Shown: positions 441-23,784 of the stretch, piece by piece
Layout: every line of letters begins with the position of its first letter
Position numbering within the stretch: the first letter of the stretch is position 1
Origin: Acidobacteriota bacterium
GTDB lineage: Bacteria > Acidobacteriota > Blastocatellia > Pyrinomonadales > Pyrinomonadaceae
Direction: 5' to 3'
Length of the DNA: 27,378 nucleotides
Assembly: GCA_020853255.1 (NCBI GenBank)
Contig: JADYZI010000370.1
Span: forward strand, 1 to 27,378
Notes under the pieces: generated by a model
The model's input: only the letters and a program-made list of their open reading frames with translations
Told to the model about the DNA's origin: nothing
Database searches by the model: none
Program-made: the position numbers and the translations under genes

Positions 441-480
441 TGCGAGCGTAAAAACACCCGAACAACACAGGTGTTTTCGC
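441..480 (-). promoter_or_regulatory. Conserved 40-bp operator-like motif, copy A
   Basis: One of four gapless 40-bp matches in the window. Written on the plus strand, the shared columns are CGAnnGT (3-9), AC[G/C]CGAA (16-22) and AnGTGnTTnC (29-38). This copy is the most symmetric: AAAACACC on the left is mirrored by GGTGTTTT on the right. It lies between the divergent lipoprotein and histidine kinase genes. Leftward, a -10-like TAGAAT (421-416) follows after 19 bp. Rightward, the -10 of the kinase operon (508-513) is 27 bp away. It could therefore control both directions, including autoregulation of the two-component system. Binding by the response regulator is inference. Confidence 0.62.
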
Positions 481-507
481 TTGCCTTTCGGATAACGGAG
501 GGGGCGT

Positions 508-513
508 TATACT
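508..513 (+). promoter_or_regulatory. Candidate -10 box of the kinase/regulator operon
   Basis: TATACT lies 33 bp before the kinase ATG. The only good -35 candidate, TTGCCT at 481-486, is 21 bp away, longer than the usual 17. This suggests a weak, activator-dependent promoter whose -35 region directly abuts operator copy A. Confidence 0.35.
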
Positions 514-546
514 CTGTATGATGAAAATGGTCTATCAAGGCAAGGT

Positions 547-1539
547 ATGAGTGAGCGGAGGTTATTGCTAGTTGTCGGCGCGGGAGGAATACTCACGCTT
601 ATATTGTTTGAATTGTTTTATGCGGGGGACCATCTGCGCTATGTCCTTTATGTGTTCGTTGGCTTGATCATTGTTTTCGGCGGAACCGCCGCGATACTGT
701 GGGCGGCCCGGATGGAAAGAAAGGCGAAGCGTTCGGATGAATTGGACCATTTGAAATCGGAGTTTGTAAGCCGTGTCTCGCATGAACTCCGTACCCCTTT
801 AACAACGATCAAAGCCCTGACACGGCTTCTGCTCCGCGGTGAGGTCAGTGATGCGAAACGACGCGAATATCTCGAAACCATCTCGATCGAGTGCGACCGC
901 CAGATCGACCTGATCTTGAATTTGCTTGATCTGTCGCGTATCGAAGGCGGTGTTTTTCGTCTTGCCCTGGAAAAAGTAGAGGCGGCCGATGTCATTTCGT
1001 CGTGCGTCAAATCGGAGATCGCGGCAGCGGAACGACGAAGCCACAAATTGCAGGTCGAACCGATCGGAGACATACCGTCGATCTGTGCTGATCCCAAACA
1101 TCTGCGACGCGTGATCTCTAACTTGATCGAAAATTCGATCAAGTACACGCCCGACGGCGGGTTGATCACACTTTCGGCGGAACTGGATGGAGACAACGTT
1201 GCACTTCGTGTAATAGACAACGGCAGAGGAATACCAAAGGCCGATCTTCCCGTCCTATTTGACAAGTTTTATCGCGGCGACCCGGCACCGCATTCGAAAG
1301 CGTTAGCGGCGTCCATGTCAAATGACGCATTTCTGGATGACGCGGATGCATCCGGCGTGGGACTCGGCCTATACCTTGCGCGGGATGTGGTGGTGCGAAT
1401 GGGCGGAAAGATAAGCGTTGAAACGGAAGTTGGTGCTGGAAGTACCTTTACGGTGCACCTTCCGATATGGGGTCCTGACACATGTGGCAGCGTTGAAAAT
1501 GAGGTGAAAGAAAATGCCGAATCGATTATTGGTAGTTGA
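547..1539 (+). CDS. Sensor histidine kinase with two N-terminal membrane segments
   Basis: A 330-aa kinase. Two hydrophobic segments (about residues 5-23 and 32-53) are joined by a very short loop, so there is almost no extracytoplasmic sensor. HisKA follows with phospho-acceptor His79 in SHELRTPLTTIKAL. The HATPase_c domain shows N box NLIENSIKY (191-200), G1 DNGRGIP (225-230), F box LFDKFYRGD (238-245) and G2 GVGLGL (270-275). An unusual 25-residue insert, rich in Ala, Asp and Ser, separates the F and G2 boxes in the ATP lid region. AAGG precedes the ATG. The gene overlaps the response regulator by 26 bp, so the two form one operon and a cognate pair. The signal could be membrane state or redox rather than an external ligand; this is inference from the missing sensor domain. 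Confidence 0.93.
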   Translation: MSERRLLLVVGAGGILTLILFELFYAGDHLRYVLYVFVGLIIVFGGTAAILWAARMERKAKRSDELDHLKSEFVSRVSHELRTPLTTIKALTRLLLRGEVSDAKRREYLETISIECDRQIDLILNLLDLSRIEGGVFRLALEKVEAADVISSCVKSEIAAAERRSHKLQVEPIGDIPSICADPKHLRRVISNLIENSIKYTPDGGLITLSAELDGDNVALRVIDNGRGIPKADLPVLFDKFYRGDPAPHSKALAASMSNDAFLDDADASGVGLGLYLARDVVVRMGGKISVETEVGAGSTFTVHLPIWGPDTCGSVENEVKENAESIIGS

Positions 1540-2146
1540 TGATGATGCAAGCCTGCTTCTGGCGGTTTCAGAAACAATGCGGGCCGAAGGATATATCGTT
1601 GTAACAGCTCGCCGCGGTGCCGAAGCCCTTGTGCGAGTTGCCGAACGTCTGCCCGATCTGATCATTAGCGACATTCGCATGCCGGGTATGGATGGGTATC
1701 AACTGGCCCGGCATCTCCGCTCGGCCCCGCATACACGTCTCGTCCCCATAGTTTTTCTGACCGCAAAGGATGAAACGGCTGATCGGATCGCCGGTTTTCG
1801 CTCGGGTGTAGATGCGTATATTACCAAGCCCTTCGAACCCGAAGAATTGGTTGCGGTCGTTTCCGGAATTCTCGAACGGGTCGAACGCACGCGCGGTGAC
1901 CTGGCCCGGCTGTTTGGCGAGAATGAAAATGAAGTCACATTTGAGCGGGATGAAGAGCTGACGGATGCTGAATGGCGTGTGGCAAAGGCAGTCGCTCACG
2001 GTTCGAGCAACAAGGAGATCGCGAAAGAATTAAATCTCAGCCTCAGGACCATCGAAGGCCATATCAGCCACATCCTGGACAAAAAACATTTGAGCAACCG
2101 AGTTGAACTTGCTCTGGCGATCGCGGGCCACAAGTTACCGGATTAA
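1514..2146 (+). CDS. Response regulator, REC plus LuxR/NarL-type HTH
   Basis: A 210-aa two-domain regulator. The receiver domain (about 1-120) has acidic pocket D10/D11, phospho-acceptor D53 in LIISDIRMPGMDG, T83 and K105 (ITKPF). The C-terminal HTH (about 148-205) has the LuxR-family signature: LTDAEWRVAKAVAHGSSNKEI followed by SLRTIEGHISHIL, so it should bind DNA as a dimer once phosphorylated. A good ribosome site, AGGTGA, lies inside the end of the kinase gene, and the start is fixed by it and by the receiver beginning at residue 4. It is the only transcription factor I see in the window and is the obvious candidate to bind the 40-bp motif repeated at 441, 3039, 11157 and 21376. That link is inference. 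Confidence 0.95.
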   Translation: MPNRLLVVDDDASLLLAVSETMRAEGYIVVTARRGAEALVRVAERLPDLIISDIRMPGMDGYQLARHLRSAPHTRLVPIVFLTAKDETADRIAGFRSGVDAYITKPFEPEELVAVVSGILERVERTRGDLARLFGENENEVTFERDEELTDAEWRVAKAVAHGSSNKEIAKELNLSLRTIEGHISHILDKKHLSNRVELALAIAGHKLPD

Positions 2147-2714: not shown

Positions 2715-2945
2715 CTAAAAGTTGTGTTGGAATCGTTCAGTCGCCATTCTGATCTCTTCGAGTTGGCGTGCCTCGAACTCACTGACCCAGTTCCTGACCG
2801 CTGAAACCATCCGACGCGCCGCTCGCTTGCTAGATCGATCATCGACGACCGCAGTATTTTCAATGCGTCTGATCTCGCCTTTTTTGATGATCCTGATCTC
2901 CGTTCGGGCAGTAGGGCCGTACTTTTTGCTTCTCGTATTACTCAT
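2715..2945 (-). CDS. Small basic hypothetical protein (76 aa)
   Basis: I recognise no family. The 76 residues are highly charged, with a basic N-terminal half (MSNTRSKKYG, IRIIKKGEIRRIE) and a C-terminal half that looks like a long amphipathic helix (SAVRNWVSEFEARQLEEIR). There is no signal peptide or membrane segment. A weak ribosome site GGAAAG precedes the ATG. Three things support it as real: operator copy B and a -10-like TAAGAT lie just upstream in the right orientation, an intrinsic terminator follows, and codon use resembles the neighbours. The frame overlaps other open frames on both strands, so a non-coding transcript cannot be excluded. Confidence 0.5.
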   Translation of the reverse strand: MSNTRSKKYGPTARTEIRIIKKGEIRRIENTAVVDDRSSKRAARRMVSAVRNWVSEFEARQLEEIRMATERFQHNF

Positions 2946-3038
2946 GGCTTTCCAACTTGTATTCGCCTGCCGTAAATTTTCAGATGCGCGTTTTTATCGT
3001 GATCTTCGCTCCTATCTTAACCACTTCGCACCTTTGGT

Positions 3039-3078
3039 GACGAGAGTAATTCTACGCGAATCACATAGGTGTTTACCC
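3039..3078 (-). promoter_or_regulatory. Conserved 40-bp operator-like motif, copy B
   Basis: Gapless match to copies A, C and D, including ACGCGAA at 3054-3060 and AGGTGTTTAC at 3067-3076. It lies after the fba stop codon (3134) and 94 bp before the start of the small gene at 2945. A -10-like TAAGAT (3019-3014) is 19 bp beyond its left edge, the same spacing as in copy A. It therefore most likely drives the 76-aa gene rather than fba. Confidence 0.6.
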
Positions 3079-3133: not shown

Positions 3134-4162
3134 TCAGCGTTGTTTGGCTTCCATGGACGCGGCGTATTCACCGCGGCGCGCCGCCCGGTTGCAGAGCGCT
3201 CGATGGACCAGCCGCTGCTGAGCGGTGTGGGCATTGGCGTCAACGCCTCGCCATATCTCCATCGCCGGTTCCTCAATGGCTCGGGCAAATGAGAACGTCA
3301 ATGCCCACGGAAGGTGAGATTTGAACCGGGCATTCATCGCATTCAAACGAGCCGTGGCCAGTTCAGCAGCTTGGCCGCCCGACAAAAACGCTACGCCCGG
3401 AACGGCCGCGGGAACGACGCGAAGGAGCGTTGTCACAGTGGCATCAGCCACCTCGTCAAGCGTTTCCTGGATCGGACATGCCAATCCCGGAAGCACCATA
3501 TTCGGTTTGAGGATCATTCCTTCAAGCATCACCCTTTGTGCGTAAAGCTTGGCAAAAACCGTATGCAGGACTTGCTCGGTAGCCTCGCGACACCGATCGA
3601 GCGAATGATCGCCTTCCATCAGGACTTCCGGTTCGACTATCGGCACAATGCCGGCTTCCTGACACAACGAAGCGTAGAGCGCGAGGATATGCGCGTTTGC
3701 CTCAATACAGGCACGGCTGGGAATACCGTCGCCCAAAATGATCTCCGCACGCCATTTGGCAAATCTGGCACCCAGTGTTGAATATTCGGCAAGGCGTTCA
3801 CGCAATCCGTCGAGGCCGCTCGTAATTTTCTCACCTGGATGCCCGGCCATGTCGGTAAGTCCGGCATCGACCTTTATACCAGGAATGATGCCCGCATCAA
3901 TGAGTACTTTTACAAACGGAATTCCGTCTTTCGTACTGTGCCGGATCGTCTCGTCGAAAAGGATGGCTCCGCTGATCGCCTCACCGAGGCCCCGAGCGGT
4001 TACGATCAACTCCCGCCACGACCTCCGAGCATCGTCGGTCTGCGGAATGTTCAATTCAGCAAAACGTTTGTCCTCGGTTGCGACGCTTTCATCCATCGCA
4101 AGCAATCCCTTATCGTCGGCCATTAATGCCCTCGCGGTTTCTATAAGTTGTTGTGAACGCAT
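3134..4162 (-). CDS. fba: Class I fructose-bisphosphate aldolase
   Basis: Catalyses reversible cleavage of fructose-1,6-bisphosphate to DHAP and glyceraldehyde-3-phosphate by a Schiff base, without a metal. Class I signatures are clear: LLAMDES near the N-terminus, GARFAKWR, IVEPEVLMEGDH, Schiff-base lysine in MILKPNM, and the phosphate-binding SGGQ. Length 342 aa fits the eukaryote-like class I family. I start at the ATG at 4162 because MRSQQLIETARALMADDKG matches the usual family N-terminus; an ATG seven codons upstream (4183) would also be open and lies 11 bp from the rpiB stop. It is the last gene of the minus-strand carbohydrate operon, 32 bp after rpiB. It would work with transaldolase and RpiB in glycolysis/gluconeogenesis and the non-oxidative pentose phosphate route. 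Confidence 0.95.
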   Translation of the reverse strand: MRSQQLIETARALMADDKGLLAMDESVATEDKRFAELNIPQTDDARRSWRELIVTARGLGEAISGAILFDETIRHSTKDGIPFVKVLIDAGIIPGIKVDAGLTDMAGHPGEKITSGLDGLRERLAEYSTLGARFAKWRAEIILGDGIPSRACIEANAHILALYASLCQEAGIVPIVEPEVLMEGDHSLDRCREATEQVLHTVFAKLYAQRVMLEGMILKPNMVLPGLACPIQETLDEVADATVTTLLRVVPAAVPGVAFLSGGQAAELATARLNAMNARFKSHLPWALTFSFARAIEEPAMEIWRGVDANAHTAQQRLVHRALCNRAARRGEYAASMEAKQR

Positions 4163-4194
4163 ATTGATAAATACCTCGATCATTCTTATACGCT

Positions 4195-4644
4195 TCAGGC
4201 GCGTTCTAGATCCGCCACTTTTGCCAGTCGGCGTTTGAACCGCTCATCTCCCTCGAAATGGGCCTTCAAAAATATCTGTACCAGATCCCAAGCGAGGGCC
4301 GGTCCGGTAATGCGGCCGCCAAGACACATTACGTTCATGTCATCATCCTCGACGCCCTGGTGTGCAGAATATGGGTCGGTGATCAACGCCGCACGCACAC
4401 CCGATATCTTATTGGACGCAACACATGCCCCGACGCCGCTCCCGCAAATGGCCAGCCCGCGTAAAACTTCTCCGCCCGCCACTGCCCGAGCCATTGGGAC
4501 CACAAGATCCGGGTAATCGTCGCCTGCGACCAACTCATGCGCACCAAAGTCAACGACCTCATACCCATCTGCCTTTAATAACTCATTCAGTGCAGCTTTC
4601 AATTCAAACCCGCCATGGTCGGCCGCAATGCCAATTCGGAACAT
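4195..4644 (-). CDS. rpiB: Ribose-5-phosphate isomerase B-type sugar isomerase
   Basis: RpiB/LacAB family, 149 aa, the normal length. Sequence landmarks are the N-terminal IGIAADHGG (D9, H10), catalytic Cys67 in AICGSGVG, the SNKISGVRAAL stretch and MNVMCLGGR near residue 103. The family interconverts ribose-5-phosphate and ribulose-5-phosphate through an enediol with Cys as base; some members act on allose- or galactose-6-phosphate, so substrate is not certain. A strong ribosome site, GGAGGG, lies about 8 nt before the ATG. The gene is 24 bp after the DUF457-like gene and immediately before fba, in the same operon as transaldolase. This context supports a pentose phosphate role. Confidence 0.93.
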   Translation of the reverse strand: MFRIGIAADHGGFELKAALNELLKADGYEVVDFGAHELVAGDDYPDLVVPMARAVAGGEVLRGLAICGSGVGACVASNKISGVRAALITDPYSAHQGVEDDDMNVMCLGGRITGPALAWDLVQIFLKAHFEGDERFKRRLAKVADLERA

Positions 4645-4668
4645 ATCCAGTTTCCCTCCTTTAAGTCT

Positions 4669-5349
4669 TCAGACCTGGCTTTCCCGAGTTCCATTTTTAG
4701 ATCGTCGTTGCCGATCCAGCCATTGGATCACTGCGGCAAAAACAACATACGAGACAAGGGCCGTAACGGCCAATTGGCCAGGCGACCCGGGCGCAGGGCC
4801 GAAAAAGATATATGCCTGCATCGCGACCATCAGCAGGCCAAACACGGACGCGCCAAAACGGCCTATGAAGTTGACGGGTGTCGTCCGTCTCATATACATA
4901 ATCATACCCCCGAACAGAAGAAACGCTTCGAGGGCGAGCGCCGCCGCTGGATAGTTCCAGATCCCGAAACCGATTTTCATTGAATTGTCGTATAGCGGCA
5001 GATCAGGCCGGTGCACTAACAAGTCCAGGATCCAGTGCGAAAACACTGCAGCCCCGATCCAACCAGCGGCGGCCCACGTACGCGGCGCGAAAATAGTCTT
5101 GCAGAGCACTCCTACCGCGATCGACCATAAGATCGCGGCGACCATACTATGCGTGTACGGCATGTAATAGAGGTCAAATGGATTTGAGGCGGTTATTCCC
5201 GGAACAATTCGGGCCTTCTCGATCCCGAGCAATATCAAGATCGACCAGACAACATCAATAAACTGAACTGAAATGAAGAGCAGCCAGAGCGGGATCGCTG
5301 GTCGAACTGCCTTGATCGCAAAACTTGGTCCATAGTGTCCAACGAACAT
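4669..5349 (-). CDS. Polytopic membrane protein, DUF457/YdjM-like
   Basis: A 226-aa protein with about six hydrophobic segments. Conserved-looking polar patches sit among them: GHYGPSF at the N-terminus, YTHSM near residue 65, and SHWILDLLVHRPDLPLY near residue 105. Such His/Asp patches recall the YdjM/DUF457 family, described as membrane-bound metal-dependent hydrolase-like proteins of unknown activity. The tail is basic (QWLDRQRRSKNG), suggesting a cytoplasmic C-terminus. The ribosome site GAGGAG is good. A perfect 7-bp hairpin lies just upstream of it. The gene sits between the molybdopterin-cytochrome gene and rpiB, so it is a regular member of the carbohydrate/redox operon. Function not known. 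Confidence 0.72.
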   Translation of the reverse strand: MFVGHYGPSFAIKAVRPAIPLWLLFISVQFIDVVWSILILLGIEKARIVPGITASNPFDLYYMPYTHSMVAAILWSIAVGVLCKTIFAPRTWAAAGWIGAAVFSHWILDLLVHRPDLPLYDNSMKIGFGIWNYPAAALALEAFLLFGGMIMYMRRTTPVNFIGRFGASVFGLLMVAMQAYIFFGPAPGSPGQLAVTALVSYVVFAAVIQWLDRQRRSKNGTRESQV

Positions 5350-5362
5350 TTCAAACTCCTCG

Positions 5363-5384
5363 GGATCAGCCTAAATACTGATCC
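5363..5384 (-). other. Hairpin directly before the DUF457-like ribosome site
   Basis: Arms GGATCAG and CTGATCC form a perfect 7-bp stem with an 8-nt loop in the 83-bp gap after the molybdopterin-cytochrome gene. On the transcript its base almost touches the GAGGAG ribosome site. There is no U-run, so it is not a plain terminator. It could be a processing or stability element that sets expression of the downstream half of the operon. Confidence 0.42.
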
Positions 5385-5432
5385 TACAGATGCTTCGCGT
5401 TTAGTTTATTGCTTCTTGCGATCTGCATAAAG

Positions 5433-7124
5433 TTAGATATTCGCCAACTCGCCGAAATATTCGTAGTCCTCCGCGAATCCGCCTTCGCCCTCACCTACAG
5501 ATCTTACTCGATCGACAAACTCGATCGACCGGATCCACTTGACCATTTTAAAACCAAGTTGATTCTCGACCCTCAGACGCAAAGGTGCGCCGTGCAGTTG
5601 CGCAAGCGGTTCGTAGTTCATCTCATACGCCAGCAAAGTTTGCGGATTTTCGGCATTCTCCATCGACAAGCTGTCGTAATAGCGAATGTCCTCGACGCCA
5701 TCGTGGAGCGCGACGCCGTCGCCGAACGAGTGGAAAACGACCGCCTTTGCATTCGGCTGCGGCTTGACGATTCGGATAAGGTCTCCCATCGGCAAACCGG
5801 TCCATGCGGCAATTCCAGACCAGCCCTGAATACAATGGTGCAGTGTTATCTGCGTTTTCGAGTCCATAGCCCGGAGCTCATCCAATGATAATTCGACCGG
5901 ATTTTCGACCAGGCCATTAACCTTCAAACGATAGTTCTTAAAATCGCCATCCGCCAGCGTCGTCCATTCTTCACTTGTCGGCATCTTGCCGTTTGCCCAA
6001 AGGAACGGCGAAATATCCTCGCGTTGAAACTCGGCCTGCGGGGCGCCGCGGTTCAGAAGCATCGACATTACCGGCGACACAAGCGCTTTGGCCACATGCT
6101 GCACCAAGCGCGGCCTCCGCCATGCCAGCCAATTGGCCAATATATTGACCGCCGCGATAACGGCGATCCCCAATACTCCAAGATAAACCCCGGCCAAAAC
6201 TATGTCATCGGTGCCGGTGACGATGTGGTTCATGTTTCTGACAAGACCAGTGATCGCCACCATAGCCACATGGCCGATGAGGAAAACGACGAAAGCACAC
6301 ATTACGAGAAAATGCAGCGACCGCCCGACCTGCCGGTTGCCGGGCAGTTCCGGATACCATTTGAAACGGTTCGTCAGCGCCGGCGACATCGACGGCCCGG
6401 TCAATATCGCAAGCGGTGCCAAAACGAACACGACACCAAAATAGGCCAGTTGCTGGAGAGCATTGTAATGATAAAAGGTATTGGGCTCCGGGGGCAGATG
6501 GAAAGTGGCATAATGGACAAAAAATGCCCAGGCATCGGGGATGATCTGCCACGATTCCGGCACCAGCCGTCGCCAATGGCCGGTCGCGAACAAGAGTACC
6601 GCATAGACAATTCCATTCGCCACCCAAAAAAGCACACTCAGAAAATGCCAGTGCCTTGCCATTCCGATGGTGTGCCGGTAACCGGGCAGGCCGATCCATG
6701 GCGAAATGTAGCGAGAGTCGTCCTTGGCCGTCCAGACACGATCTTTAGGAACTTCGATCGGCGTGAACCTGAGCCACTCGGTGCCGGGTGTGCAATGGAC
6801 ATTCCAGTATAACCGCGGGTGGTCCATCAATATCTGCAGGCCGCTGCGGACGAGCAGGATAATAAAAAAGAAGTTGACATAATGGGTGATCCGCAGCCAT
6901 GCCGGGAAACCAAACGGACCAACCGCCGTTTCAGGCGTCATTGTCGCGGCTGAATTTAACGCTGGCAGTCCGAACGTCGCCCACTGAATATAGGCGGCTG
7001 CAACCATCAAAAATAAAGGCGAGGCGATCAGCAGTAAAACTTTGGCGTTGTAACGCATGATCCCGAAGCGTGGAGTTCCAGGCAAGCCTTCATCCTTGCT
7101 CAACGTTGTTGCCTTCGCAGTCAT
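5433..7124 (-). CDS. Fused b-type cytochrome / sulfite-oxidase-fold molybdopterin protein
   Basis: A 563-aa two-part protein. Residues 1-335 hold six predicted membrane helices (about 29-50, 79-99, 160-180, 225-244, 269-293 and 308-330). His candidates for haem ligation are H81, H158/H160, H271 and H285, as in the cytochrome b561/Ni-hydrogenase b subunit group. Residues about 395-545 are a sulfite-oxidase-type molybdopterin domain; Cys431 in HHCIQGWSGIAAW is the expected molybdenum ligand. There is no Tat signal. Charges (R19, R24, K28 before helix 1; WRRPR after helix 6) put both ends in the cytoplasm. The likely role is electron exchange between the quinone pool and an unknown substrate. 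It starts 2 bp after the HAD gene stop. MsrP/MsrQ pairs are an analogy only, since here the two functions are fused. Confidence 0.88.
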   Translation of the reverse strand: MTAKATTLSKDEGLPGTPRFGIMRYNAKVLLLIASPLFLMVAAAYIQWATFGLPALNSAATMTPETAVGPFGFPAWLRITHYVNFFFIILLVRSGLQILMDHPRLYWNVHCTPGTEWLRFTPIEVPKDRVWTAKDDSRYISPWIGLPGYRHTIGMARHWHFLSVLFWVANGIVYAVLLFATGHWRRLVPESWQIIPDAWAFFVHYATFHLPPEPNTFYHYNALQQLAYFGVVFVLAPLAILTGPSMSPALTNRFKWYPELPGNRQVGRSLHFLVMCAFVVFLIGHVAMVAITGLVRNMNHIVTGTDDIVLAGVYLGVLGIAVIAAVNILANWLAWRRPRLVQHVAKALVSPVMSMLLNRGAPQAEFQREDISPFLWANGKMPTSEEWTTLADGDFKNYRLKVNGLVENPVELSLDELRAMDSKTQITLHHCIQGWSGIAAWTGLPMGDLIRIVKPQPNAKAVVFHSFGDGVALHDGVEDIRYYDSLSMENAENPQTLLAYEMNYEPLAQLHGAPLRLRVENQLGFKMVKWIRSIEFVDRVRSVGEGEGGFAEDYEYFGELANI

Positions 7125-7126
7125 CT

Positions 7127-7780
7127 TCAGGCACTCACCATGTCAGTCGCGATGTCGCCTATCAATCCAAACGCCTCCAATTTTATACAGGTCGATCCAT
7201 GGTCCACGTGATGAATGCTGTTTATGCCGAATGAATCCGCAATATCGACATACATCGCCGTATTTTCGAGATAGACGATCTGCTCCGCGGGCACTTGTGC
7301 GATATCCAGAGCAAGACGAAAGATTTCCGCATCCGGTTTTCGCATGCCGACAAAGCAAGACGACACAAAGGCATCAATAAATTCAGCCAAGCGAAATTTG
7401 TGGATCCTAAACGCATTTAACTCGCGTGCTTCATTGCTGACGACTATCGCTTTCAAATGGTACTGTGCCTTGAGCATGCGTACCAATTCGATCATCTCAG
7501 CATCGGCCTTGGAGCATGCGAACATAAATTCCTTGAATTGGCCGTGCGTAAACTGACGCTGCTCGTAGAACACTGTTCGATCCAGATATTCGTCGAGCGA
7601 GAGTTTTCCTTCCTCGTAAACCCCGAATACAAGTCGATGGCGATCCTCCATTTCGGCAAAGTCGAGACCAAACTTTGCGGCCGCCTGTTCTCGAAACTCT
7701 GTATTCCAACCGTCCGTGAGCAATACGCCGCCAATGTCCAGAAACAAACACGTGATCTTTGAGCTGCGTTTCTTTTTCAT
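7127..7780 (-). CDS. HAD-family hydrolase, YihX-like, altered motif IV
   Basis: A 217-aa HAD subfamily IA protein. Motif I is FLDIGGVLL, with the nucleophile Asp but Gly in place of the second Asp, as in YihX (DLGN). Motif II is VVSNEAR, motif III has Lys in GMRKPDAEIF. Motif IV reads YLENTAMYVDIAD where family members usually have two adjacent Asp. I start at the ATG at 7780 (MKKKRSSKITCLFLDIGG); the open frame extends 55 codons upstream but only as an overlap with the pgm 3' end. The ATG is 4 bp after the pgm stop, so the two genes are tightly coupled. YihX is an alpha-glucose-1-phosphate phosphatase, and adjacency to phosphoglucomutase fits that, but the changed acidic pair leaves activity uncertain. 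Confidence 0.88.
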   Translation of the reverse strand: MKKKRSSKITCLFLDIGGVLLTDGWNTEFREQAAAKFGLDFAEMEDRHRLVFGVYEEGKLSLDEYLDRTVFYEQRQFTHGQFKEFMFACSKADAEMIELVRMLKAQYHLKAIVVSNEARELNAFRIHKFRLAEFIDAFVSSCFVGMRKPDAEIFRLALDIAQVPAEQIVYLENTAMYVDIADSFGINSIHHVDHGSTCIKLEAFGLIGDIATDMVSA

Positions 7781-7784
7781 TTCT

Positions 7785-9482: not shown

Positions 9483-9513
9483 TATCTCATGTCCATTTGT
9501 CGGTTCAATTACC

Positions 9514-9686
9514 AGCGGACTGTAACAAATAATCTCGAAGTAATTTCTTGCAGATCTCTTCTTGTTTGCGGACGTTGTATCCCGTCCAGGCGACTTTTGT
9601 GTTAACAATTTTTCTTGACACAAAGCACACCAACTTGAAGACACAAAGAGCACAAAGTACTTGCGGCTCAATTGTTACAGTCCACT
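9514..9686. repeat. 173-bp segment with 15-bp terminal inverted repeats
   Basis: The plus strand at 9514-9528 and the minus strand at 9686-9672 read AG[C/T]GGACTGTAACAA, 14 of 15 identical. The right arm includes the transaldolase stop codon. Between the arms lie three copies of a CACAAAG word (gacacaaag at 9617 and 9640, gcacaaag at 9650), the first two 23 bp apart. No target-site duplication is evident. It could be a decayed MITE-like element or a long-range mRNA stem. It fills most of the 192-bp gap between tal and pgm. Confidence 0.4.
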
Positions 9687-10772: not shown

Positions 10773-10796
10773 AAGCCCTCCTTATAGTCTCGGGTT

Positions 10797-11074: not shown

Positions 11075-11156
11075 CTTCCCTTCTGTGCCCCCTTTTCTTT
11101 GCTCAGCATGATCTTCGTGCCATGTTATCTAAAGTTTATTCAGTTGTATTTGCATC

Positions 11157-14300: not shown

Positions 14301-17300
14301 CGTGCACGCAGTGCCGCGTCAGAATATAGAATGTGAGCGGCAAGTCGCTGAAATAGATAAGCGTTTTCCGGATCGATCTTTAAGTGGCGCATTTCGACCT
14401 GGGCCCGCGTCCACGCCAATGCGGCTTCACGCTCGAAGATCTGAACATCACAGTATTTATCGGCCAGCCGCATCGCTTCGTCATACGAATGGGCCACCGC
14501 CGTCGCAAAAGATATGCGAACGGTTTCGCGTGGCTTGACGCGAATGCACCGGCGAAGAGAAAAGATGGGGTCCAAAACGGCCCCTACCGTATTCGACAGC
14601 GGCCGGTCCTCGACCACGGCAACCGGCTCACGCGTATCATGTCCGCGGCCAAGAAAGCGCGACCGGTCCGTTTCGTATTGAACCGCCCCTATCGTATCGC
14701 CATCTGTTGCGATGGTGTGGACCGCCAGGATCACCTCGTCGGTTTCAGTTCGCGGCCGGCGCTGGGCGATAAGCGAACTCTCGGCTGAATTGAATTCCGT
14801 TTCTATAGACAGATTGCTGAATGCCGGATGCGCAGCATCGGCCAACCGCGGGGCCAAAACTATTTCCGAATAGCTGGTTATTTCAATCTCGCGAACATCG
14901 GGCCCGTTGTTAGTGATCGAAACTCGCCTGATCTCCGCACTATCTTCAGGTGAGACGATTATTTCAGTCGTCGTCGCGATCTTGTTGTCACGCCGCCGGA
15001 TCACGGCCTTATCTTCAGAGAACGAAACTTCGTAAAACCGTGCCCGCTTACCAACCGGCTGGTGTCCGGCGGACCATACGTCGCCGCTCGCTATGTCACG
15101 CAGGTATATGAAACTGCCTGACGAATCGCGGGTCGTATCCTCGCGCCAACGGGTAACAGCCAGCTCGTTATACATTGAATAGCCCGCACCGGAATTCGTG
15201 ACCATTACCGAGTACGAACCATTTGAGACTATCTGTACGCGCGGGGTCGTCAGGTCTGGTGTATCGAACGTTCGCGTAATGCGGTCGGAGATCTGACGGT
15301 TCACGCTGCCCGACAAAACCTCTTCAGCACGCGGATGCCAGGCCGCCGCACCTTGCGGTATTCGTTCCTGAAGCAGAAGTTCTGTTGCCTGGACAAGCGG
15401 TTCCGTGTGAAAACGGTCCTGCATTATGTCCCTGTTGATCAAATTGTTAAGCGCGACCATGATCATTCCCTGATGATGTGCCATATAGGTGAGGACCACG
15501 GCCTTTTCCTTGCCGGGCGGCAATCGCAGCGGGGTATAGTCTATTGATTCGTAAAATCCATATCGAGACAGAGTATTTTCCCGTACCAGATGGCGAAAAT
15601 TTTCCATCGCTGATTGCGGCGAAACTAAGGCCCCGAGCGCCGTTGCATAAGGTGCGATCACGAGATCTTCGCTCAATCCGCGTATTAGGCCAAGACCCGG
15701 AACACCAAATGCCCGATATTGATAATTGAGCTGCATATCACGCGCGTTATACGCCGACTCCGACATGCCCCAGGGAATTTTGTTTTGTGCACCGTATTCG
15801 ATCTGCCGTGTAACGACCGCCTTATAGGTTTGGTTTAGAAGAGTTCCATCAACGTCGCGCATCACCAAGATAGGCATTAGATACTCGAACATCGTTCCAG
15901 TCCAAGAAACAAGGGCCCGGCTTGAATCCACAGGAGTAAGCGGCCTGCCGAGCCGGAACCAATGCTCCTGGGCGATCTCATCCTTTGCTATCGCCACAAA
16001 ACTCGTTAGCCGTGCTTCAGAAGCAAGCAGGTCATAATACGAATTATCTCTTCGTTCTAGATCGACGTTGTATCCGATCGAAAAGATCTTCCTCTGTTCG
16101 TCAAAGAGAAAATCGAACTTCATCTCATCGACGATCTCAGCACTTTGAGCGGCGAGGGAGTTCAGATCTACGGCGGCTGACTGCGCTGCTTGCTCGGCTG
16201 TCTTGAGCTTTGCCAGCAGGGTCTCGATGGCCTTCAATGCCGCCGCCGGGTCCGGATCGCCCTTTCCCGAATTGGCGATCCCTTCCTCGATGCCGAGGAG
16301 CACGGACCGAAGGTCTTCGTACAGTTCGGGTAGTTCAGATAGCGGAGGTATCGGCTTGAGTAGCTCGGTTATCTTCCCAAGTTCCTGCCGGATCGCCGGA
16401 AAGTTTGGCCCTATGATCTCGAAAAGGTGGGAAATATCGCGTTCTTGCCATGGGATCAATGTACTGATCTCCTGACGATATCGCTGTGTTTGGTGCGACA
16501 GGTCATTTGACCAGGACCTTAGTTCATGAAAATCCGCCTCGCCGTGTTCCTGCGACAACACTCCGATGATGTCGCCGATGGCAACAGCATGTGCGATCAG
16601 GGAGTCAGACAGGTTAACCCAGTCACCGGTTGTCTCGTGCGGCCCGCTCGCCAATAGCCGGACACATGTACCTATCTCAGCCTGAAGCTGCTTGATCGTC
16701 ACGGCCTCCGTTCGCTTGCTGACGATATTGAATTGCTTCGCTTCTTCGCGTATCAATTCAAGTGTATCGCTCAATCCGTCAATTACATCTGATCGAAATA
16801 GCTTTTGCCCCGCGATCTCGGTGACCGCCTGCTTGACCGCAAGCAGATGGCCCGCCAAATTCCCGCTATCGACGGTTGAAATATAGCGTGGCGAAAGAGG
16901 AGCAAGCGATTGCGTGTCATACCAATTCAAATAATGACCACGGACCTTCACGAGTTTTTCGAGGGTGGCAAACGTAAACCCGAGCCTCTCTATAAGTTCA
17001 AGTACGCCGATATAACCAAGGTCATACGCGGAAATTGTGGACAAGAAGTATAGGCCGATATTTGTCGGCGAGGTACGATGAGCGATCTTTGGCTGCGGGT
17101 CTTCCTGAAAGTTGTCAGGCGGGAGCCAATTTGAATTATCGCCGACGAAGGTTTCAAAAAATCGCCAGGTACGTCGGGCGATCGATCGTGCCATCCTGGC
17201 GTCGGCCATACTCAGCTGTACCTGTTTGCTCCGCGGTGCGAAACTGATCCGGTAGGCGACGAAAGGCGCAAGGACCCAAAGGAGTAAAAATGGTCCCGCA

Positions 17301-20233
17301 GCCAACCCGGCCGATGGACGAAACCAAAACACGATCGGTACCGCGATCAATGACAAAAGCGTTGAGGCCCACATTGACCACAAAAGTGCCGCCTGGCCGT
17401 GCGGACGCTCTCTTTCGCTTTGGGCCGCCGTTTTCCATTCCAACAATGCTTTGTGTGAGATGATCTTGCGGTAAAGGGTGCGTACGATGGCATCACAATT
17501 TGAATGCGCCTGATGAGCAAGTACCACTATCAAAAACAATACCTGGAGCGTGTTCGTCCGGACATCACCTAAGACAGTCCAAAAATGGCTCGTCCACGGA
17601 ATGCCGCGGGGGTGTGTCAATAGGTTGGTCTGGAGATGTGCATAGACCGGAAACGCAAGCACCACAATAATAAAAAGCGTCCACAAAAGCGGCGAGCCTG
17701 GAATCACTGTCCATACTGCCAGCAGCCAGAGGAAAATAGCCGGGGCAACTAAACTTCTGCGCAAATTATCAAGGATCTTCCACCGTGAAATAGCGGAAAG
17801 GTCATTCCTCACGCTTTTCCCATTCGCGTTTTTTATCCACGGAAATATCCATCTGGCGATTTGCCAGTCGCCGCGTACCCAACGATGCGATCGCTCTGTG
17901 AAGCTGTCATAATGAGCTGGAAAATCGTCTAGGAGTTCGACATCGGACACCAACCCGCAACGGGCGTACAAGCCTTCGAAAAGATCATGGCTAAGCAGAG
18001 AATTCTCAGGTACCCGACCCTTTAGCGCCGCGCGAAACGCATCAACATCATAGAGCCCTTTACCAACAAAACTTCCCTCTCCAAACAGATCTTGGTAAAC
18101 GTCTGAGGCCGCTGTTGTATATGGATCAATGCCGGTATTCCCAGAAAAGATGCGGGCAAAATAGGAACGTGACGCGCTTTGCAGTGAAATGCTGATACGC
18201 GGCTGCAGAATGGCATAGCCCTGAATGACCCGCTGCAAATTTTCGTCAAATTTCGGACGATTGAGCGGATGCACCGCGATACCAATAAGGCTGTGCGCGG
18301 CATCGCGCGGTAATTGCGTGTCCGAATCAAGCGTGATGACATATTTGATCTGCTTCAGAAATTTCTTGTCAGCAAGAATTTCCGTATAACTCGTTTCTCC
18401 GTCGCCCCGCAGCAGTGTATTAAACTCCTCCAGTTTGCCGCGTTTCCGTTCCGACCCCATCCATTTTTGCTCGCCTTCATTCCATTGGCGCCGGCGGTGA
18501 AAGAGATAGAATTTTTCATACTTTGTTTGCTCATATTTTTGATTTAATGCTTTGATCCCGTCACGTGCCGCTTTAATGATCTCTGAATCTTCCGCCAGTT
18601 CTTCGGCCAAAGCGTCTGAAAAGTCAGTGAGCAAAGCGAAGTATAAGTTGTTGTCCTGATTCGCAAGACTATAGACCTCCAGTTTTTCAAGCAACTCTGC
18701 AACAACAGATGGACTGGACAATAGAGTAGGAATTACGACAAATGTTCGCGCCTCGTCCGGAATACCTGTAGTTGTATCTATTTGCGGAAGGATGCGCGGC
18801 GGGACCATTCGTGCAAAATCCCAATTTAGAACGCTCAGTGCCAGATCGCTGGCCGGAATGATAGAAAGCACCGCGAAAGCAATGGTCAACGGAAGGCCCG
18901 CTCCGAGATAGGCGGCCGAGTAAGCCAAAAGCAGAACGACCAGTGCCGTCAACACCGCGGCTGATCCGAGGTAAGAAAAGGTCGGATGCCGCAATATGAA
19001 AAAAACAAGCTTTTCCGCGATCTCAGGACGATATTGGAATTCTTTCTCGATCTCCGAGACACCTTTATCTATTAAATAAAAGCCAATATGCGAGCGCCGC
19101 CGATCCGAGGCATCGCGGCGGCGGGCGCCTTGGGACTTTTCGACGACTTTCCGTGCAACCCTTAATTCATCTGCTTTGGTGCGCCTTGCGATCCGCTCAA
19201 CCACCTCACGGTAACGATTGCGCGTACCGAACGTCATCTTTGAATAGATCTTTGCTGGGTCTTTGCTGAAAAGCGGATCGATCAAACTGACGCTTTCAAA
19301 GAATGTTCTCCAATCGATCGTCGAAAGAAGACGCATACTCGTGATAATGTTCCCAACCGTAACCTGGGCGACTGCCTGCAGTTGGTACTCGGTCTCAACT
19401 GACAGCTCGATGCTCGAACCACGCTCATGCAGCTTGTTTGCCAGCCATTCATACGCGGGCGCGATGGCGAGGTCCCGGTCGCGTAGCTGGCACGTAAACC
19501 TTTCGACAAAGGCAGTCTCGAATTCTGTTCGTTTATCGAGATGTTGCGTAACAAATTGCAAAACCTCTTCGGGCCGTTTGCCGGCAATTTCCATCAGTTC
19601 GTCGGCCAGCTTCTCTGCTTCTTCGCGAGCTTCACGCGACTGAATTATCCGCCATGCAAACCGACGCAGGTTTTCAATAAGAACGATCCTGAGCGTGATG
19701 GCGATCGCCCAAAGTTCGCCGATCGTCAGCGGTGTGACGGCCTGGTAGGACCGCAGGAATCTTTCCAGGGCTTCGACATCGAGCCGACTGTCGGTATGGG
19801 CGATGATCGACATCGCGATGGCATAGATACGCGGATAACCCGCAAACTCACCATTTGCCAATTTTGGCAATTCACGATAGTAACCCGGAGGCAGGTCTTC
19901 GTGGATCTCACGAAGCTGTTCTTCCACAATATGAAAGTTGTCGACCAACCATTCCGCCGCCGGAGAGACCGATCGCTCTTCACGAATTGCATTTGCCAAT
20001 GAATAGTACGCTCCAAGCAGGACCTTGCCGTTATCTTTAAGGCGTGGACGCAGCAATTTATATCTTTTGGGCTGGTCCGCGGCCTTATGCTCCTTGGCGA
20101 GGGCCGCGGCAAATTGTTCAAATTTTTCGGCGCTGAATATCTCGCCGCGAATTGGTTGTTCAATATTGCCGGGCTTAACAAAATTTTTAAGCATGCCGGA
20201 TATTCCGTGAGTTGATCTAGTCATTGTTTCCAT
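11399..20233 (-). CDS. ndvB: Cyclic beta-1,2-glucan synthase-like giant protein (GT84-GH94)
   Basis: At 2,944 aa it is close to rhizobial NdvB/ChvB and Brucella Cgs (about 2,830-2,870). Order of parts: N-terminal region; membrane helices near 410-470; glycosyltransferase with ITLDSDTQLPRD (about 630) and RSHRWVRGDWQ (about 780); more helices near 845-990; a glycoamylase-like domain (about 1370-1630, HHQGMIMVALN); two beta-sandwich modules (about 1660-1815 and 2140-2410); and a C-terminal alpha/alpha barrel of GH94 phosphorylase type with MGSGDWNDGM (general-acid Asp near 2621) and PTGRGVRTRISDDLLWLP. The family makes cyclic osmoregulated glucans from UDP-glucose in the inner membrane and adjusts chain length by phosphorolysis. 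AGGA precedes the ATG, which lies inside the stress protein gene (13-bp overlap). Whether this member cyclises or makes another glucan cannot be read from sequence. Confidence 0.9.
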   Translation of the reverse strand: METMTRSTHGISGMLKNFVKPGNIEQPIRGEIFSAEKFEQFAAALAKEHKAADQPKRYKLLRPRLKDNGKVLLGAYYSLANAIREERSVSPAAEWLVDNFHIVEEQLREIHEDLPPGYYRELPKLANGEFAGYPRIYAIAMSIIAHTDSRLDVEALERFLRSYQAVTPLTIGELWAIAITLRIVLIENLRRFAWRIIQSREAREEAEKLADELMEIAGKRPEEVLQFVTQHLDKRTEFETAFVERFTCQLRDRDLAIAPAYEWLANKLHERGSSIELSVETEYQLQAVAQVTVGNIITSMRLLSTIDWRTFFESVSLIDPLFSKDPAKIYSKMTFGTRNRYREVVERIARRTKADELRVARKVVEKSQGARRRDASDRRRSHIGFYLIDKGVSEIEKEFQYRPEIAEKLVFFILRHPTFSYLGSAAVLTALVVLLLAYSAAYLGAGLPLTIAFAVLSIIPASDLALSVLNWDFARMVPPRILPQIDTTTGIPDEARTFVVIPTLLSSPSVVAELLEKLEVYSLANQDNNLYFALLTDFSDALAEELAEDSEIIKAARDGIKALNQKYEQTKYEKFYLFHRRRQWNEGEQKWMGSERKRGKLEEFNTLLRGDGETSYTEILADKKFLKQIKYVITLDSDTQLPRDAAHSLIGIAVHPLNRPKFDENLQRVIQGYAILQPRISISLQSASRSYFARIFSGNTGIDPYTTAASDVYQDLFGEGSFVGKGLYDVDAFRAALKGRVPENSLLSHDLFEGLYARCGLVSDVELLDDFPAHYDSFTERSHRWVRGDWQIARWIFPWIKNANGKSVRNDLSAISRWKILDNLRRSLVAPAIFLWLLAVWTVIPGSPLLWTLFIIVVLAFPVYAHLQTNLLTHPRGIPWTSHFWTVLGDVRTNTLQVLFLIVVLAHQAHSNCDAIVRTLYRKIISHKALLEWKTAAQSERERPHGQAALLWSMWASTLLSLIAVPIVFWFRPSAGLAAGPFLLLWVLAPFVAYRISFAPRSKQVQLSMADARMARSIARRTWRFFETFVGDNSNWLPPDNFQEDPQPKIAHRTSPTNIGLYFLSTISAYDLGYIGVLELIERLGFTFATLEKLVKVRGHYLNWYDTQSLAPLSPRYISTVDSGNLAGHLLAVKQAVTEIAGQKLFRSDVIDGLSDTLELIREEAKQFNIVSKRTEAVTIKQLQAEIGTCVRLLASGPHETTGDWVNLSDSLIAHAVAIGDIIGVLSQEHGEADFHELRSWSNDLSHQTQRYRQEISTLIPWQERDISHLFEIIGPNFPAIRQELGKITELLKPIPPLSELPELYEDLRSVLLGIEEGIANSGKGDPDPAAALKAIETLLAKLKTAEQAAQSAAVDLNSLAAQSAEIVDEMKFDFLFDEQRKIFSIGYNVDLERRDNSYYDLLASEARLTSFVAIAKDEIAQEHWFRLGRPLTPVDSSRALVSWTGTMFEYLMPILVMRDVDGTLLNQTYKAVVTRQIEYGAQNKIPWGMSESAYNARDMQLNYQYRAFGVPGLGLIRGLSEDLVIAPYATALGALVSPQSAMENFRHLVRENTLSRYGFYESIDYTPLRLPPGKEKAVVLTYMAHHQGMIMVALNNLINRDIMQDRFHTEPLVQATELLLQERIPQGAAAWHPRAEEVLSGSVNRQISDRITRTFDTPDLTTPRVQIVSNGSYSVMVTNSGAGYSMYNELAVTRWREDTTRDSSGSFIYLRDIASGDVWSAGHQPVGKRARFYEVSFSEDKAVIRRRDNKIATTTEIIVSPEDSAEIRRVSITNNGPDVREIEITSYSEIVLAPRLADAAHPAFSNLSIETEFNSAESSLIAQRRPRTETDEVILAVHTIATDGDTIGAVQYETDRSRFLGRGHDTREPVAVVEDRPLSNTVGAVLDPIFSLRRCIRVKPRETVRISFATAVAHSYDEAMRLADKYCDVQIFEREAALAWTRAQVEMRHLKIDPENAYLFQRLAAHILYSDAALRARSAVLALNTKAQSDLWAYGIGGDLPIVLIRINRGDDLAKIKQILRAHEYLRLKGLIFDLLILNDLPSSYLQSLHDELLNLVRTTGQADLLDKNGGIFIKRSDQIPEADRILLHTVARVVIVADRGNLEDEILRRPVESKLPKDLVARSPQPVYSEPPSTTPDLSFFNGLGGFGNGGREYVTILDEGQRTPAPWLNVIANDQSFGFQVSETGSGFTWSINSRENRLTPWSNDAVSDPPGEMIYLRDEETGAIWTPTPLPIREAGSYTITHGHGYSKFAHISHGVEHELTLFVPLDGPVKISLLRLRNQSKRKRKLTVTNYNELVLGFDRSRTVPYVVTETSVDGRYVRARNRYNNEFAERVAFIATDQPLSSLTCDRKEFIGRNGNLRQPAALGREKLSGRVGAGLDPCAALQTTVELDPDAEIEMVFLIGEAGSDEEVDGVVSRFRELSEVKASFDKVVDHWEKMLGTIEIRTPDIALNTLVNRWLLYQTLACRVWARSAFYQSGGAFGFRDQLQDVMSLVYAKPKIAREQILIASARQFKEGDVQHWWHPPTGRGVRTRISDDLLWLPFVASFYIKVTGDASLLDEVVPFIEAPLLKDGETDSYTQPTISSESATVLEHCLRAIDRSIPVGIHGLPLMGSGDWNDGMNFVGHEGKGESVWVGWFLLNTLNDVIPLLAGRNEADRESKYREHVKDLKTALEENAWDGNWYRRAYFDDGTALGSAENDECRIDSIAQAWSVISGGGNLHQATRAMTSVDEYLIRPGDGLVLLFTPPFDKGKLNPGYIKGYLPGVRENGGQYTHAAMWTIIAYALLGDGDKVGELFSLLNPINHTGTRAGLHKYKVEPYVLAGDVYSEPQHIGRGGWTWYTGSASWMYRTALESMLGFHLRGEKLTIDPCIPRGWRDLEIDYRHGDALYQIKVENPSCVCRGVAEVRLDSKILASNEIPLTAHGQTHQVLVVLGEPKNT

Positions 20234-21177
20234 TTATTCCTGGATTCATCGGTAACTTTCCTTGAAATGACCTCGACCGAACATGAAGCTCGTGACGCAA
20301 CGGCCGATGCTACGCAGCCCAGCCAATGTGATCGTCGGGAGTTCATTCCAACGAATATCGTGTCAGCCCTCCATTCGTGCGACGCGTTGACCAGAATGAT
20401 CCGGGGGTTACCGCTGTATGTTTGCATCGAAGCCGTCAAGCCTGCGTCCCGAAGCGTACATAAAGCCCGTTCAGCTAAAGCTCTAACCCATTTTTCTTCG
20501 CCTCTCGTCCTGTTTTCTGGAACGCCCGGGACCACGCGAAAGGCCCTTCCTGGTATCAATGCGTCCAATGGGTCCGTCACGACCAAAAGACGGATCTCTG
20601 GATGGCCGTGCCAGTTTCGTAACGCGGCGGTATTGACCGCTTCCACTGAGCACGGCGAGCCATCAAAACAAATGATAATTTTTGGCTGGTCGGTCTCGCT
20701 TGCCGGGTCTCCTCGGCCAATACGCACTGAGAATGGGGTGTATGAAATAACGTTCTGCGCAATGCTTCCCAACCCGGATATACTTGCGGAGGAGAGCCCT
20801 CGAGGGCCGATTGCGATCATGTCCGGCCGTAAGGCCGCAGACCTTTCCAGGATCATTTGAGCGGGCGAGCCTATTGCGGATTCAACTTCGATCGTCCAGC
20901 CGGGGAAATGATCCTGCAGTTCAGTCCTTGCTTCGATCAGGACCGCATTCGTCTCTGAAAGATTTCTATCTATTTGCTCGGAGTGTTTGCGGATATAATC
21001 GAGGATCTCGTTGTCTTGCGACGTATCGCTGTTGACTTCGCCTATCTTCGCTCGCAGCCAGACTTCGGAAACTGAAATGATCACGGCCTTTGCCTTATTC
21101 GGCAAGCCGGCCCGCCGAAGGTCATCCAGGGTATTTCGCGAGTATCCCGAGCCATCGTAAGCGATCAAGATCTTCAT
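20221..21177 (-). CDS. Tandem-domain universal stress protein
   Basis: Two UspA domains in about 318 aa. Domain 1 begins MKILIAYDGSGYSRNTLDDLRRAGLP and ends with an intact nucleotide-binding motif, GPRGLSSASISGLGS. Domain 2 begins KIIICFDGSPCSVEAVNTA and ends GMNSRRSHWLGCVASAVASRASCSVEV, where the usual first G-x-x-G is degraded, so only domain 1 may bind ATP. I start at the ATG at 21177 because the family begins there and AAGG/GAGG lie upstream. An ATG at 21231 (with GGCGG before it) and a TTG at 21237 would add about 20 residues. The stop overlaps the glucan synthase start by 13 bp, so the pair is co-translated. Operator copy D lies upstream. The likely role is stress or energy-state signalling tied to glucan production. 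Confidence 0.9.
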   Translation of the reverse strand: MKILIAYDGSGYSRNTLDDLRRAGLPNKAKAVIISVSEVWLRAKIGEVNSDTSQDNEILDYIRKHSEQIDRNLSETNAVLIEARTELQDHFPGWTIEVESAIGSPAQMILERSAALRPDMIAIGPRGLSSASISGLGSIAQNVISYTPFSVRIGRGDPASETDQPKIIICFDGSPCSVEAVNTAALRNWHGHPEIRLLVVTDPLDALIPGRAFRVVPGVPENRTRGEEKWVRALAERALCTLRDAGLTASMQTYSGNPRIILVNASHEWRADTIFVGMNSRRSHWLGCVASAVASRASCSVEVISRKVTDESRNKWKQ

Positions 21178-21335
21178 GAACCTTGGTACCTCAGCGCCCC
21201 CATTTTTCGAACGAGTGACCCGGCTACTCATGTTCAAACCGCCCCCGGCCTGATCCTCGTTTTAAAATATCCAATACAAGTCGCGGTGATCTGCGATCTT
21301 TATGTCTCGACCTCCGCAACGCGGGTTTCCGTTAA

Positions 21336-21353
21336 ACGACTAGACGACTAGAG
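21336..21353. repeat. Short direct repeat upstream of the stress protein gene
   Basis: CGACTAGA occurs twice back to back (ACGACTAGACGACTAGAG) between operator copy D and the stress protein start, just past the -10-like TAATAT (21360-21355). It falls near the predicted transcript start. It may be incidental. Confidence 0.3.
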
Positions 21354-21375
21354 TATATTAGATCGATCACCTTCG

Positions 21376-21415
21376 TGCGACGGTGTTTTCACGCGAATTG
21401 TGTAAGTGTTTCCTA
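21376..21415 (-). promoter_or_regulatory. Conserved 40-bp operator-like motif, copy D
   Basis: Gapless match to A-C: GCGACGGTG, TTCACGCGAA and AAGTGTTTCC. The direct repeat GTGttttcACGC and GTGtttccTACG, 23 bp apart, is clear. It lies between the hemL stop (21500) and the stress protein gene, with a -10-like TAATAT 15 bp beyond its left edge and 118 bp further to the longest ATG start. It would drive the USP-glucan synthase operon. Confidence 0.62.
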
Positions 21416-23781: not shown

Positions 23782-23784
23782 TTA

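What the first reader, a model, noticed from the sequence alone, without database searches (positions are those of the whole stretch)
441..21415. Four copies of an unrecognised 40-bp intergenic motif define a putative regulon
Copies at 441-480, 3039-3078, 11157-11196 and 21376-21415 align without a gap. 18 of 40 columns are identical in all four: CGAnnGT, then AC[G/C]CGAA, then AnGTGnTTnC at fixed spacing. Chance alone would leave fewer than one invariant column in a random alignment of four, although I did select the alignment. None lies in a coding region, and all have the same orientation. Inside the motif a GTG-plus-ACGC-like unit repeats after 23 bp (best in copies C and D), about two helical turns, suggesting two protein dimers on one DNA face. 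I do not recognise it as a published operator.
Basis: seen in the sequence. Interest (0 to 1): 0.9.

Follow-up and report, generated by a model that had tools for sequence, protein, structure and literature searches.

The report
Double-box stress promoters of one regulator
Four short motifs in this bacterial DNA look like paired docking sites for a stress-response switch protein encoded beside them, each sitting exactly where it could turn a promoter on, and one amino acid of that protein tracks one base of the motif across related bacteria.

Summary
In detail: four gap-free copies, 18 of 40 columns invariant, 4 hits against 0.02 expected. The motif is a double operator: two palindromic boxes (core GTGTTAACAC) of 7-2-7 geometry, centres 23 bp apart, 22-23 bp upstream of a TAnnnT -10 element that was not used to find it. 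That element is at 43 of 56 non-training sites (shuffled mean 3.7), at 33 of 42 from genomes outside the discovery set, and at all four window sites. All four promoters point to minus-strand genes. In relatives the motif follows an orthologue of the NarL/FixJ-type response regulator at 1514-2146: p = 1.8e-10 over 162 genomes, 1.4e-5 without the discovery genomes. Recognition-helix residue X (RT[IV]E-X-H) tracks motif base 21: X=G, C in 20 of 27 sites; other X, T in 40 of 40; X=G occurs in two separate clades. A prediction written beforehand mostly held. Best explanation: regulator dimers bind both boxes and activate a small regulon rich in stress genes (universal stress proteins, ferritin, YflT, OsmC, GrpE) and, here, sugar-phosphate enzymes. 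A new member of a known kind; no bench evidence.

The parts
441..480 (-). Operator A; 7-2-7 boxes at 468-483 (distal) and 445-460 (proximal)
   Evidence: 40/40 in L001 and 37/40 in L002, flanks 93% and 91%
416..421 (-). -10 element TAGAAT of promoter A, 23 bp after the proximal box
2..325 (-). Target of A: ORF that runs off the window; lipoprotein-like N-terminus by eye; no Pfam match
3039..3078 (-). Operator B; boxes at 3066-3081 and 3043-3058
   Evidence: 36/40 in L001, flanks 89%
3014..3019 (-). -10 element TAAGAT of promoter B, 23 bp after the proximal box
2715..2945 (-). Target of B: 76-aa ORF, no Pfam match; 78% identical copy in L001
11157..11196 (-). Operator C; boxes at 11184-11199 and 11161-11176
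   Evidence: 37/40 in L184, flanks 86%; site in L198 before the orthologous genes
11133..11138 (-). -10 element TAAACT of promoter C, 22 bp after the proximal box
3134..11074 (-). Targets of C, a likely (inferred) operon: 75-aa ORF (10847-11074), transaldolase (9675-10772), phosphoglucomutase (7785-9473, after a 201-bp gap), HAD hydrolase (7127-7780), molybdopterin oxidoreductase fused to cytochrome b561 (5433-7124), membrane protein with a weak YdjM match below cut-off (4669-5349), RpiB (4195-4644), class I aldolase (3134-4162)
   Evidence: Pfam; ORF75-tal-pgm-HAD-molybdopterin protein-rpiB in the same order in L198, where the membrane protein and aldolase are not found
21376..21415 (-). Operator D; boxes at 21403-21418 and 21380-21395
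   Evidence: 38/40 kept in L183 while aligned flanks are 145/217
21352..21357 (-). -10 element TATACT of promoter D, 22 bp after the proximal box
11399..21231 (-). Targets of D: universal stress protein (20221-21231), then a 2941-aa GH94/glucoamylase protein (11399-20224)
   Evidence: Pfam; orthologues in L183 (89% and 95%) behind the D site, and of the GH94 protein in L199 (77%)
547..1539 (+). Histidine kinase (HisKA, HATPase_c), likely partner of the regulator
1514..2146 (+). Response regulator, receiver + LuxR/GerE helix-turn-helix (NarL/FixJ type), the proposed binder; recognition helix RTIEGH, X = G
   Evidence: co-occurrence; residue-base pairing

Best explanation
Each motif is a double operator of the NarL/FixJ-type response regulator encoded at 1514-2146. 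When the neighbouring kinase phosphorylates it (inferred), one dimer binds each 7-2-7 box (consensus in gene direction nRVGTGn-ta-ACACCYR-N7-YRGGTGT-ta-ACACNST). From the spacing to the -10 (shown) the proximal box centres at about -42.5 or -43.5 and the distal one at about -65.5 or -66.5 from the start (start sites inferred). The proximal dimer lies where a -35 element would be and recruits RNA polymerase (class II activation, inferred). It switches on a small regulon clustered around the regulator gene: universal stress proteins, ferritin, YflT/OsmC/GrpE-type stress proteins, many small proteins of unknown function, and here a sugar-phosphate operon and a giant GH94 enzyme. Residue X of the recognition helix reads base 21 of the motif and its mirror base 13 (covariation shown, contact inferred).
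For: Beyond chance. Promoter geometry not used in selection: TAnnnT at offsets 21-23 in 43 of 56 non-training sites, shuffled mean 3.7, maximum 11 in 1000; 40 of 52 after removing four near-copies of training sites, 33 of 42 from genomes other than G001-G008; 82 of 88 sites in at least one orientation; 12 of 13 new sites. Co-occurrence in 162 genomes: both 14, regulator only 11, motif only 4, neither 133 (Fisher). Co-location: 36 of 41 matches lie on a contig with a regulator gene (both strands of a near-palindromic site count twice; three of these contigs were discovery loci); nearest site within 250 bp of the gene for 16 of 28 regulator genes. Specificity: X=G 20/27 C21, other X 40/40 T21, p = 1.5e-11 (sites within a locus are not independent); by locus 18 of 18 non-G loci pure T, 10 of 10 G loci contain C; X=G in two separate clades. 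X aligns with the V that I recall as V189 in NarL 1je8. 7-2-7 sites are the NarL mode (PMC4549865 passages; PMC7419079 introduction).
Against: No binding, footprint or expression data. 11 of 25 regulator-bearing genomes lack a stringent match, although each of the 11 has at least one site of 16 or more near a regulator gene. L175, L221 and L222 hold the regulator and no such site. X=G sites are not pure (5 T, 2 A of 27); L162 is 3 C, 3 T. In G004, whose only regulator found has X=G, 7 of 10 sites on other contigs have C21 and 3 have T; such sites were left out of the 67. In the prediction test one X=N site had A, and not all of it was blind (see full report). The motif was first learned near regulator genes, so full-sample co-occurrence is partly circular. 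Motif without a detected regulator: G009, G016, G044, G122; in G009 the contig ends inside a kinase gene of this family.
Confidence: 0.84

Rival explanations
1. The boxes are bound by a different transcription factor whose gene travels with this two-component system or lies elsewhere; the response regulator is only a neighbour.
For: Sites occur on contigs without the regulator (G001:C111, G001:C161, several G004 contigs). Four motif-bearing genomes show no regulator match.
Against: Base 21 tracks one recognition-helix residue of this regulator, in two separate clades and within genomes that carry several paralogues: clean in G038 and G008, partial in G003. The largest gene families beside sites are the kinase (15), universal stress proteins (11) and an unnamed 177-207 aa family (6); none of these is a DNA-binding family by Pfam.
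Confidence: 0.09
2. Same regulator, but the boxes repress transcription because they overlap the promoter.
For: The proximal box covers the -35 position. TTGACA-like letters there are slightly above random: 45 of 70 promoters match 3 or 4 of 6 against about 31 expected, though the box's own fixed letters contribute.
Against: No promoter matches 5 or 6 of TTGACA, so they look activator-dependent. Fixed spacing from box to -10 is typical of activators that touch polymerase (general knowledge).
Confidence: 0.06
3. The motif works as RNA: a hairpin in the 5' leader of the messages.
For: The composite is an imperfect dyad that could pair; symmetric positions show some excess pairing (z 3.6 at 13/21, 2.5 at 7/27, 2.4 at 2/34).
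Against: A -10 element lies downstream, so the motif should be upstream of the transcript. Most symmetric positions show no excess, and the 13/21 excess follows the regulator type. No Rfam match in the window.
Confidence: 0.01
4. Chance alignment or a dispersed repeat element.
Against: 0.02 expected; sites recur with orthologous genes and -10 spacing in divergent genomes; the flanks printed show no shared repeat by eye.
Confidence: 0.005

Closest known systems
NarL of E. coli at the yeaR and ogt promoters
   Same: Two-component NarL-family activator; inverted heptamers 2 bp apart; one site by the -35 (ogt -44.5), a second upstream (PMC7419079, abstract and introduction seen).
   Different: Heptamer YRGGTGT here; an engineered NarL site is TACCCCTAAAGGGGTA (PMC4549865 passage). 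The second ogt site is at -77.5, here at about -65.5. Different genes; signal unknown.
DevR/DosR of mycobacteria and OsdR of Streptomyces
   Same: NarL subfamily; closely packed boxes, the proximal one over the -35 (PMC3029386 passages); regulon with universal stress and heat-shock proteins, its conserved core around the regulator gene (PMC5069765 abstract and passages).
   Different: Box sequence (OsdR consensus AGGGCCGATCGGCCCT); the window kinase has no sensor domain that Pfam finds. Orthology was not tested; DosR is not among the 60 of 302 chains shown nor the 18.
LiaR and VraR
   Same: Best solved matches of the DNA-binding part: 4wt0 and 4wsz (4WSZ is LiaR by PMC9263151), 5hev VraR.
   Different: Similarity only at domain level; their role in Gram-positive envelope stress is recalled.

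Membership tests
NarL/FixJ response regulators | Receiver domain plus LuxR/GerE helix-turn-helix | tested here: met
   Pfam Response_reg 8.4e-28 and GerE 2e-13; match along nearly the whole length to NarL 1a04, 3.6e-21
NarL/FixJ response regulators | Binds inverted heptamers spaced by 2 bp (7-2-7) | tested here: inconclusive
   Sequence geometry fits at both boxes; binding itself not testable here
NarL/FixJ response regulators | Activated by phosphorylation from a partner kinase | not testable with these tools
   Kinase and regulator ORFs overlap by 26 bp; chemistry untested
DevR/DosR-OsdR dormancy regulators | GGG-type palindromic box (OsdR AGGGCCGATCGGCCCT, PMC5069765 passage) | tested here: not met
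   Consensus heptamer here is YRGGTGT
DevR/DosR-OsdR dormancy regulators | Partner kinase with GAF sensor domains (recalled) | tested here: not met
   Window kinase: HisKA and HATPase_c only. Ten relatives: HAMP in 7, dCache-type above cut-off in 2 and below it in 2, PAS in 3, GAF in one PAS/GAF hybrid
DevR/DosR-OsdR dormancy regulators | Closely packed boxes, proximal one over the -35, regulon with universal stress proteins | tested here: met
   At sequence level only. This says it works like them, not that it is one

The most novel reading that the evidence does not exclude
One recognition-helix residue and one operator base form a natural specificity code that keeps paralogous copies of this two-component system apart in one cell: G038, G008 and G003 carry 2 to 4 copies with different X, and boxes near each copy tend to carry the matching base 21 (clean in G038 and G008, partial in G003). 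The copies share one fixed double-box promoter plan but take different sensor kinases.
Probability: 0.5. Interest if true: 0.68.

Novelty: new member of a known kind. Interest (0 to 1): 0.58.

Why it matters
It supplies a regulator, an operator, a promoter plan and a gene list for a stress-like response in Acidobacteriota, common in soil and hard to culture (general knowledge). Among the rows listed by four searches of an open-access library no such regulon appeared (two searches listed 10 of 711 and 15 of 162). The residue-base pairing makes NarL-family specificity, and the separation of paralogous two-component systems, testable with a few synthetic promoters.

Tried and rejected
RNA element: no Rfam match at the gathering threshold; only weak symmetric covariation. 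sigma54-like elements: looked for by eye, nothing consistent. Autoregulation is not claimed: for 14 of the 15 kinase genes beside sites the assigned promoter points away from the kinase. Conservation between the window and G001/G002 is weak evidence for A-C, whose flanks are 86-93% identical; only D stands out. Single 7-2-7 boxes were not searched for, so I cannot say that the double box is obligatory. Notebook slips, mended here: one search gave 42 matches and 4 controls for (recount: 41 and 3); one search gave hits in 9 of 10 loci for (recount: 10 of 10). Literature: searches listed no paper naming the NarL contact residues. The DosR base contacts Lys179, Lys182, Asn183 are from a PMC4082495 passage; placing X on Asn183 is my own register, not computed.
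Full report
Observation. Searching the constant columns with 3 mismatches returns only these four; shuffles give 0.02. No whole genome is held for the window, so relatives were used. The regulator between copies A and B has orthologues in ten loci (L001-L010, 61-96% identical) of assemblies titled Acidobacteriota, Pyrinomonadaceae or Blastocatellia; the next rows, from other phyla, are 43% or less over their best segment apart from a few short receiver matches.

Direction and anatomy. Read as the reverse complement, the sites align as G[T/A]GnaAACACCYR-N7-YRnGTGttAAYACNST. A first matrix from the four sites finds at least one hit of 13 or more in 10 of 10 of these loci, several only at 13-18, and 2 in 70 loci of other taxa. 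In eight genomes, 29 matches with up to 3 mismatches compare with 3 for the reversed pattern. Alignment of 32 sites shows two 10-bp palindromes centred at 5.5 and 28.5, each extending to two heptamers 2 bp apart, and a TAnnnT at positions 59-64 (T 26/32, A 22/32, T 23/32). Positions beyond 40 played no part in choosing sites.

Promoter. Over 87 sites with enough downstream sequence, TAnnnT starts 22 bases after the motif in 49 and 23 bases after in 19, and 0-5 times at every other offset from 5 to 33. Of 56 sites outside the training set 43 have it at offsets 21-23, shuffled mean 3.7, maximum 11 of 1000. Four of the 56 are near-copies of training sites; without them 40 of 52; from genomes other than G001-G008, 33 of 42. 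Of the 18 of 88 sites without it (one lacks enough sequence), 12 have it in mirrored orientation, so 82 of 88 in at least one; 28 of 88 have it mirrored. Divergent site pairs 86-222 bp apart occur. All four window sites have it on the minus strand. If the hexamer is at -12 to -7, the boxes centre at about -42.5 and -65.5 (one base further for A and B). TTGACA matches at the -35 place are slightly above random (45 of 70 with 3-4 of 6; about 31 expected) and never 5 or 6. ORF starts lie within 350 bp downstream of 66 of 88 sites, median 90. Six of 88 sites overlap an ORF of 150 aa or more after overlapping ORFs were removed.

Regulator. In 80 genomes of the family 13 have the motif (41 matches, 3 reversed controls), 17 the regulator, 10 both. 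In 162 genomes of the class 18 have the motif (69 matches, 5 controls), 25 the regulator, 14 both: p = 1.8e-10. Without G001-G008, which shaped the motif, 7 of 17 against 4 of 137: p = 1.4e-5. Around regulator genes 20 of 21 fetched loci have a site of 16 or more (L175 has none), and 6 of 8 further ones (L221 and L222 have none). Backgrounds: none of 14 or more in 1.54 Mb shuffled, none in 271 kb of other contigs of such genomes, 2 in 1.1 Mb of other taxa.

Specificity code. The recognition helix reads RT[IV]E-X-H, X = G, N, H, M, S or A. Assigning 67 sites to the nearest regulator on their contig: X=G, C21 in 20 of 27 (5 T, 2 A) and G13 in 17 of 27; other X, T21 in 40 of 40 and A13 in 37 of 40; p = 1.5e-11 and 2.8e-7. 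Sites in a locus are not independent; by locus, 18 of 18 non-G loci are pure T and 10 of 10 G loci contain C. Sites on contigs without a regulator were left out; in G004 (only regulator found X=G) those give C in 7 of 10 and T in 3. The tree puts the X=G pair of G038 and G029 in one supported clade (100/96), outside the main X=G clade (98/98): two origins, or parallel losses. Before fetching eight loci I wrote the prediction down. It was not wholly blind: the G008:C509 site letters were already (its X was not known), and most of G008:C21 had been fetched. New sites: X=G, C in 2 of 2 (one fully blind, L223); other X, T in 4 of 5, the other A; 12 of 13 new sites have the -10. X falls on the V that I recall as V189 of NarL (HMMER alignment to 1je8).

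Regulon. Window targets: two ORFs without Pfam match; a likely operon of transaldolase, phosphoglucomutase, HAD, molybdopterin/cytochrome b protein, RpiB and aldolase; a universal stress protein with a 2941-aa GH94 enzyme. Of 100 ORFs beside sites about 58 were scanned. They include 11 universal stress proteins (11 of 11 Usp; 8 downstream of a site as oriented, 3 only on its other side), ferritin, baeRF10, YkuD, a penicillin-binding protein, BON, DUF2382, sulfate permease, fatty-acid desaturase, MgtE, GrpE, OsmC. Fourteen scanned neighbours, window ones included, have no Pfam match, so 'stress regulon' is an inference. G122, where no regulator was found, has a C-type site before ORF75, YflT, tal, pgm, HAD, molybdopterin protein, rpiB and a ferritin, and a site 187 bp before the start of the GH94 protein (77% identical). 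Gene calls were simple ORF calls, so some targets may be wrong.

Known relatives. NarL uses 7-2-7 sites and activates ogt from -44.5 and -77.5 (PMC7419079, abstract and introduction; PMC4549865, passages). DevR boxes are closely packed, the proximal one over the -35 (PMC3029386, passages). OsdR and DevR share a core regulon around the regulator gene, with universal stress proteins (PMC5069765, abstract and passages). This system works like them but differs in box sequence and kinase. No published counterpart appeared among the rows listed.

Verdict. A real operator with a strongly indicated regulator. Shown by computation: composite motif, -10 spacing, co-occurrence, residue-base covariation. 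Inferred: binding, phosphorylation, activation, stress function.

Noticed in passing
window 547-1539; L007, L010, L162, L164, L166, L167, L168, L172, L177, L180: The kinase beside the regulator has different input parts in different genomes (HAMP with or without a dCache-type domain, PAS with DUF4118, a PAS/GAF hybrid, or none found in the window), while regulator and boxes stay.
   Followed up: partly
G038, G008, G003: Single genomes carry 2-4 paralogues of this regulator with different recognition-helix residues.
   Followed up: partly
window 5433-7124: A cytochrome b561 domain fused to a molybdopterin oxidoreductase domain in one protein, inside the sugar-phosphate gene run.
   Followed up: no
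window 11399-20224: A 2941-aa GH94/glucoamylase protein directly behind a universal stress protein.
   Followed up: no
window 21500-27264: A tetrapyrrole synthesis run (class III aminotransferase, ALAD, HemD, porphobilinogen deaminase, glutamyl-tRNA reductase) next to a 1-Cys peroxiredoxin; no box found there.
   Followed up: no
L163 8767-8988, L170 9352-9624, L162 8071-8307: A family of 73-90 aa proteins sits beside a box near the regulator in three genomes; the two members scanned have weak zinc-ribbon matches below cut-off.
   Followed up: partly
L221, L222: G001 and G002 carry a second regulator copy (about 60% identical, X = N) with no site of 16 or more in the stretch fetched.
   Followed up: no
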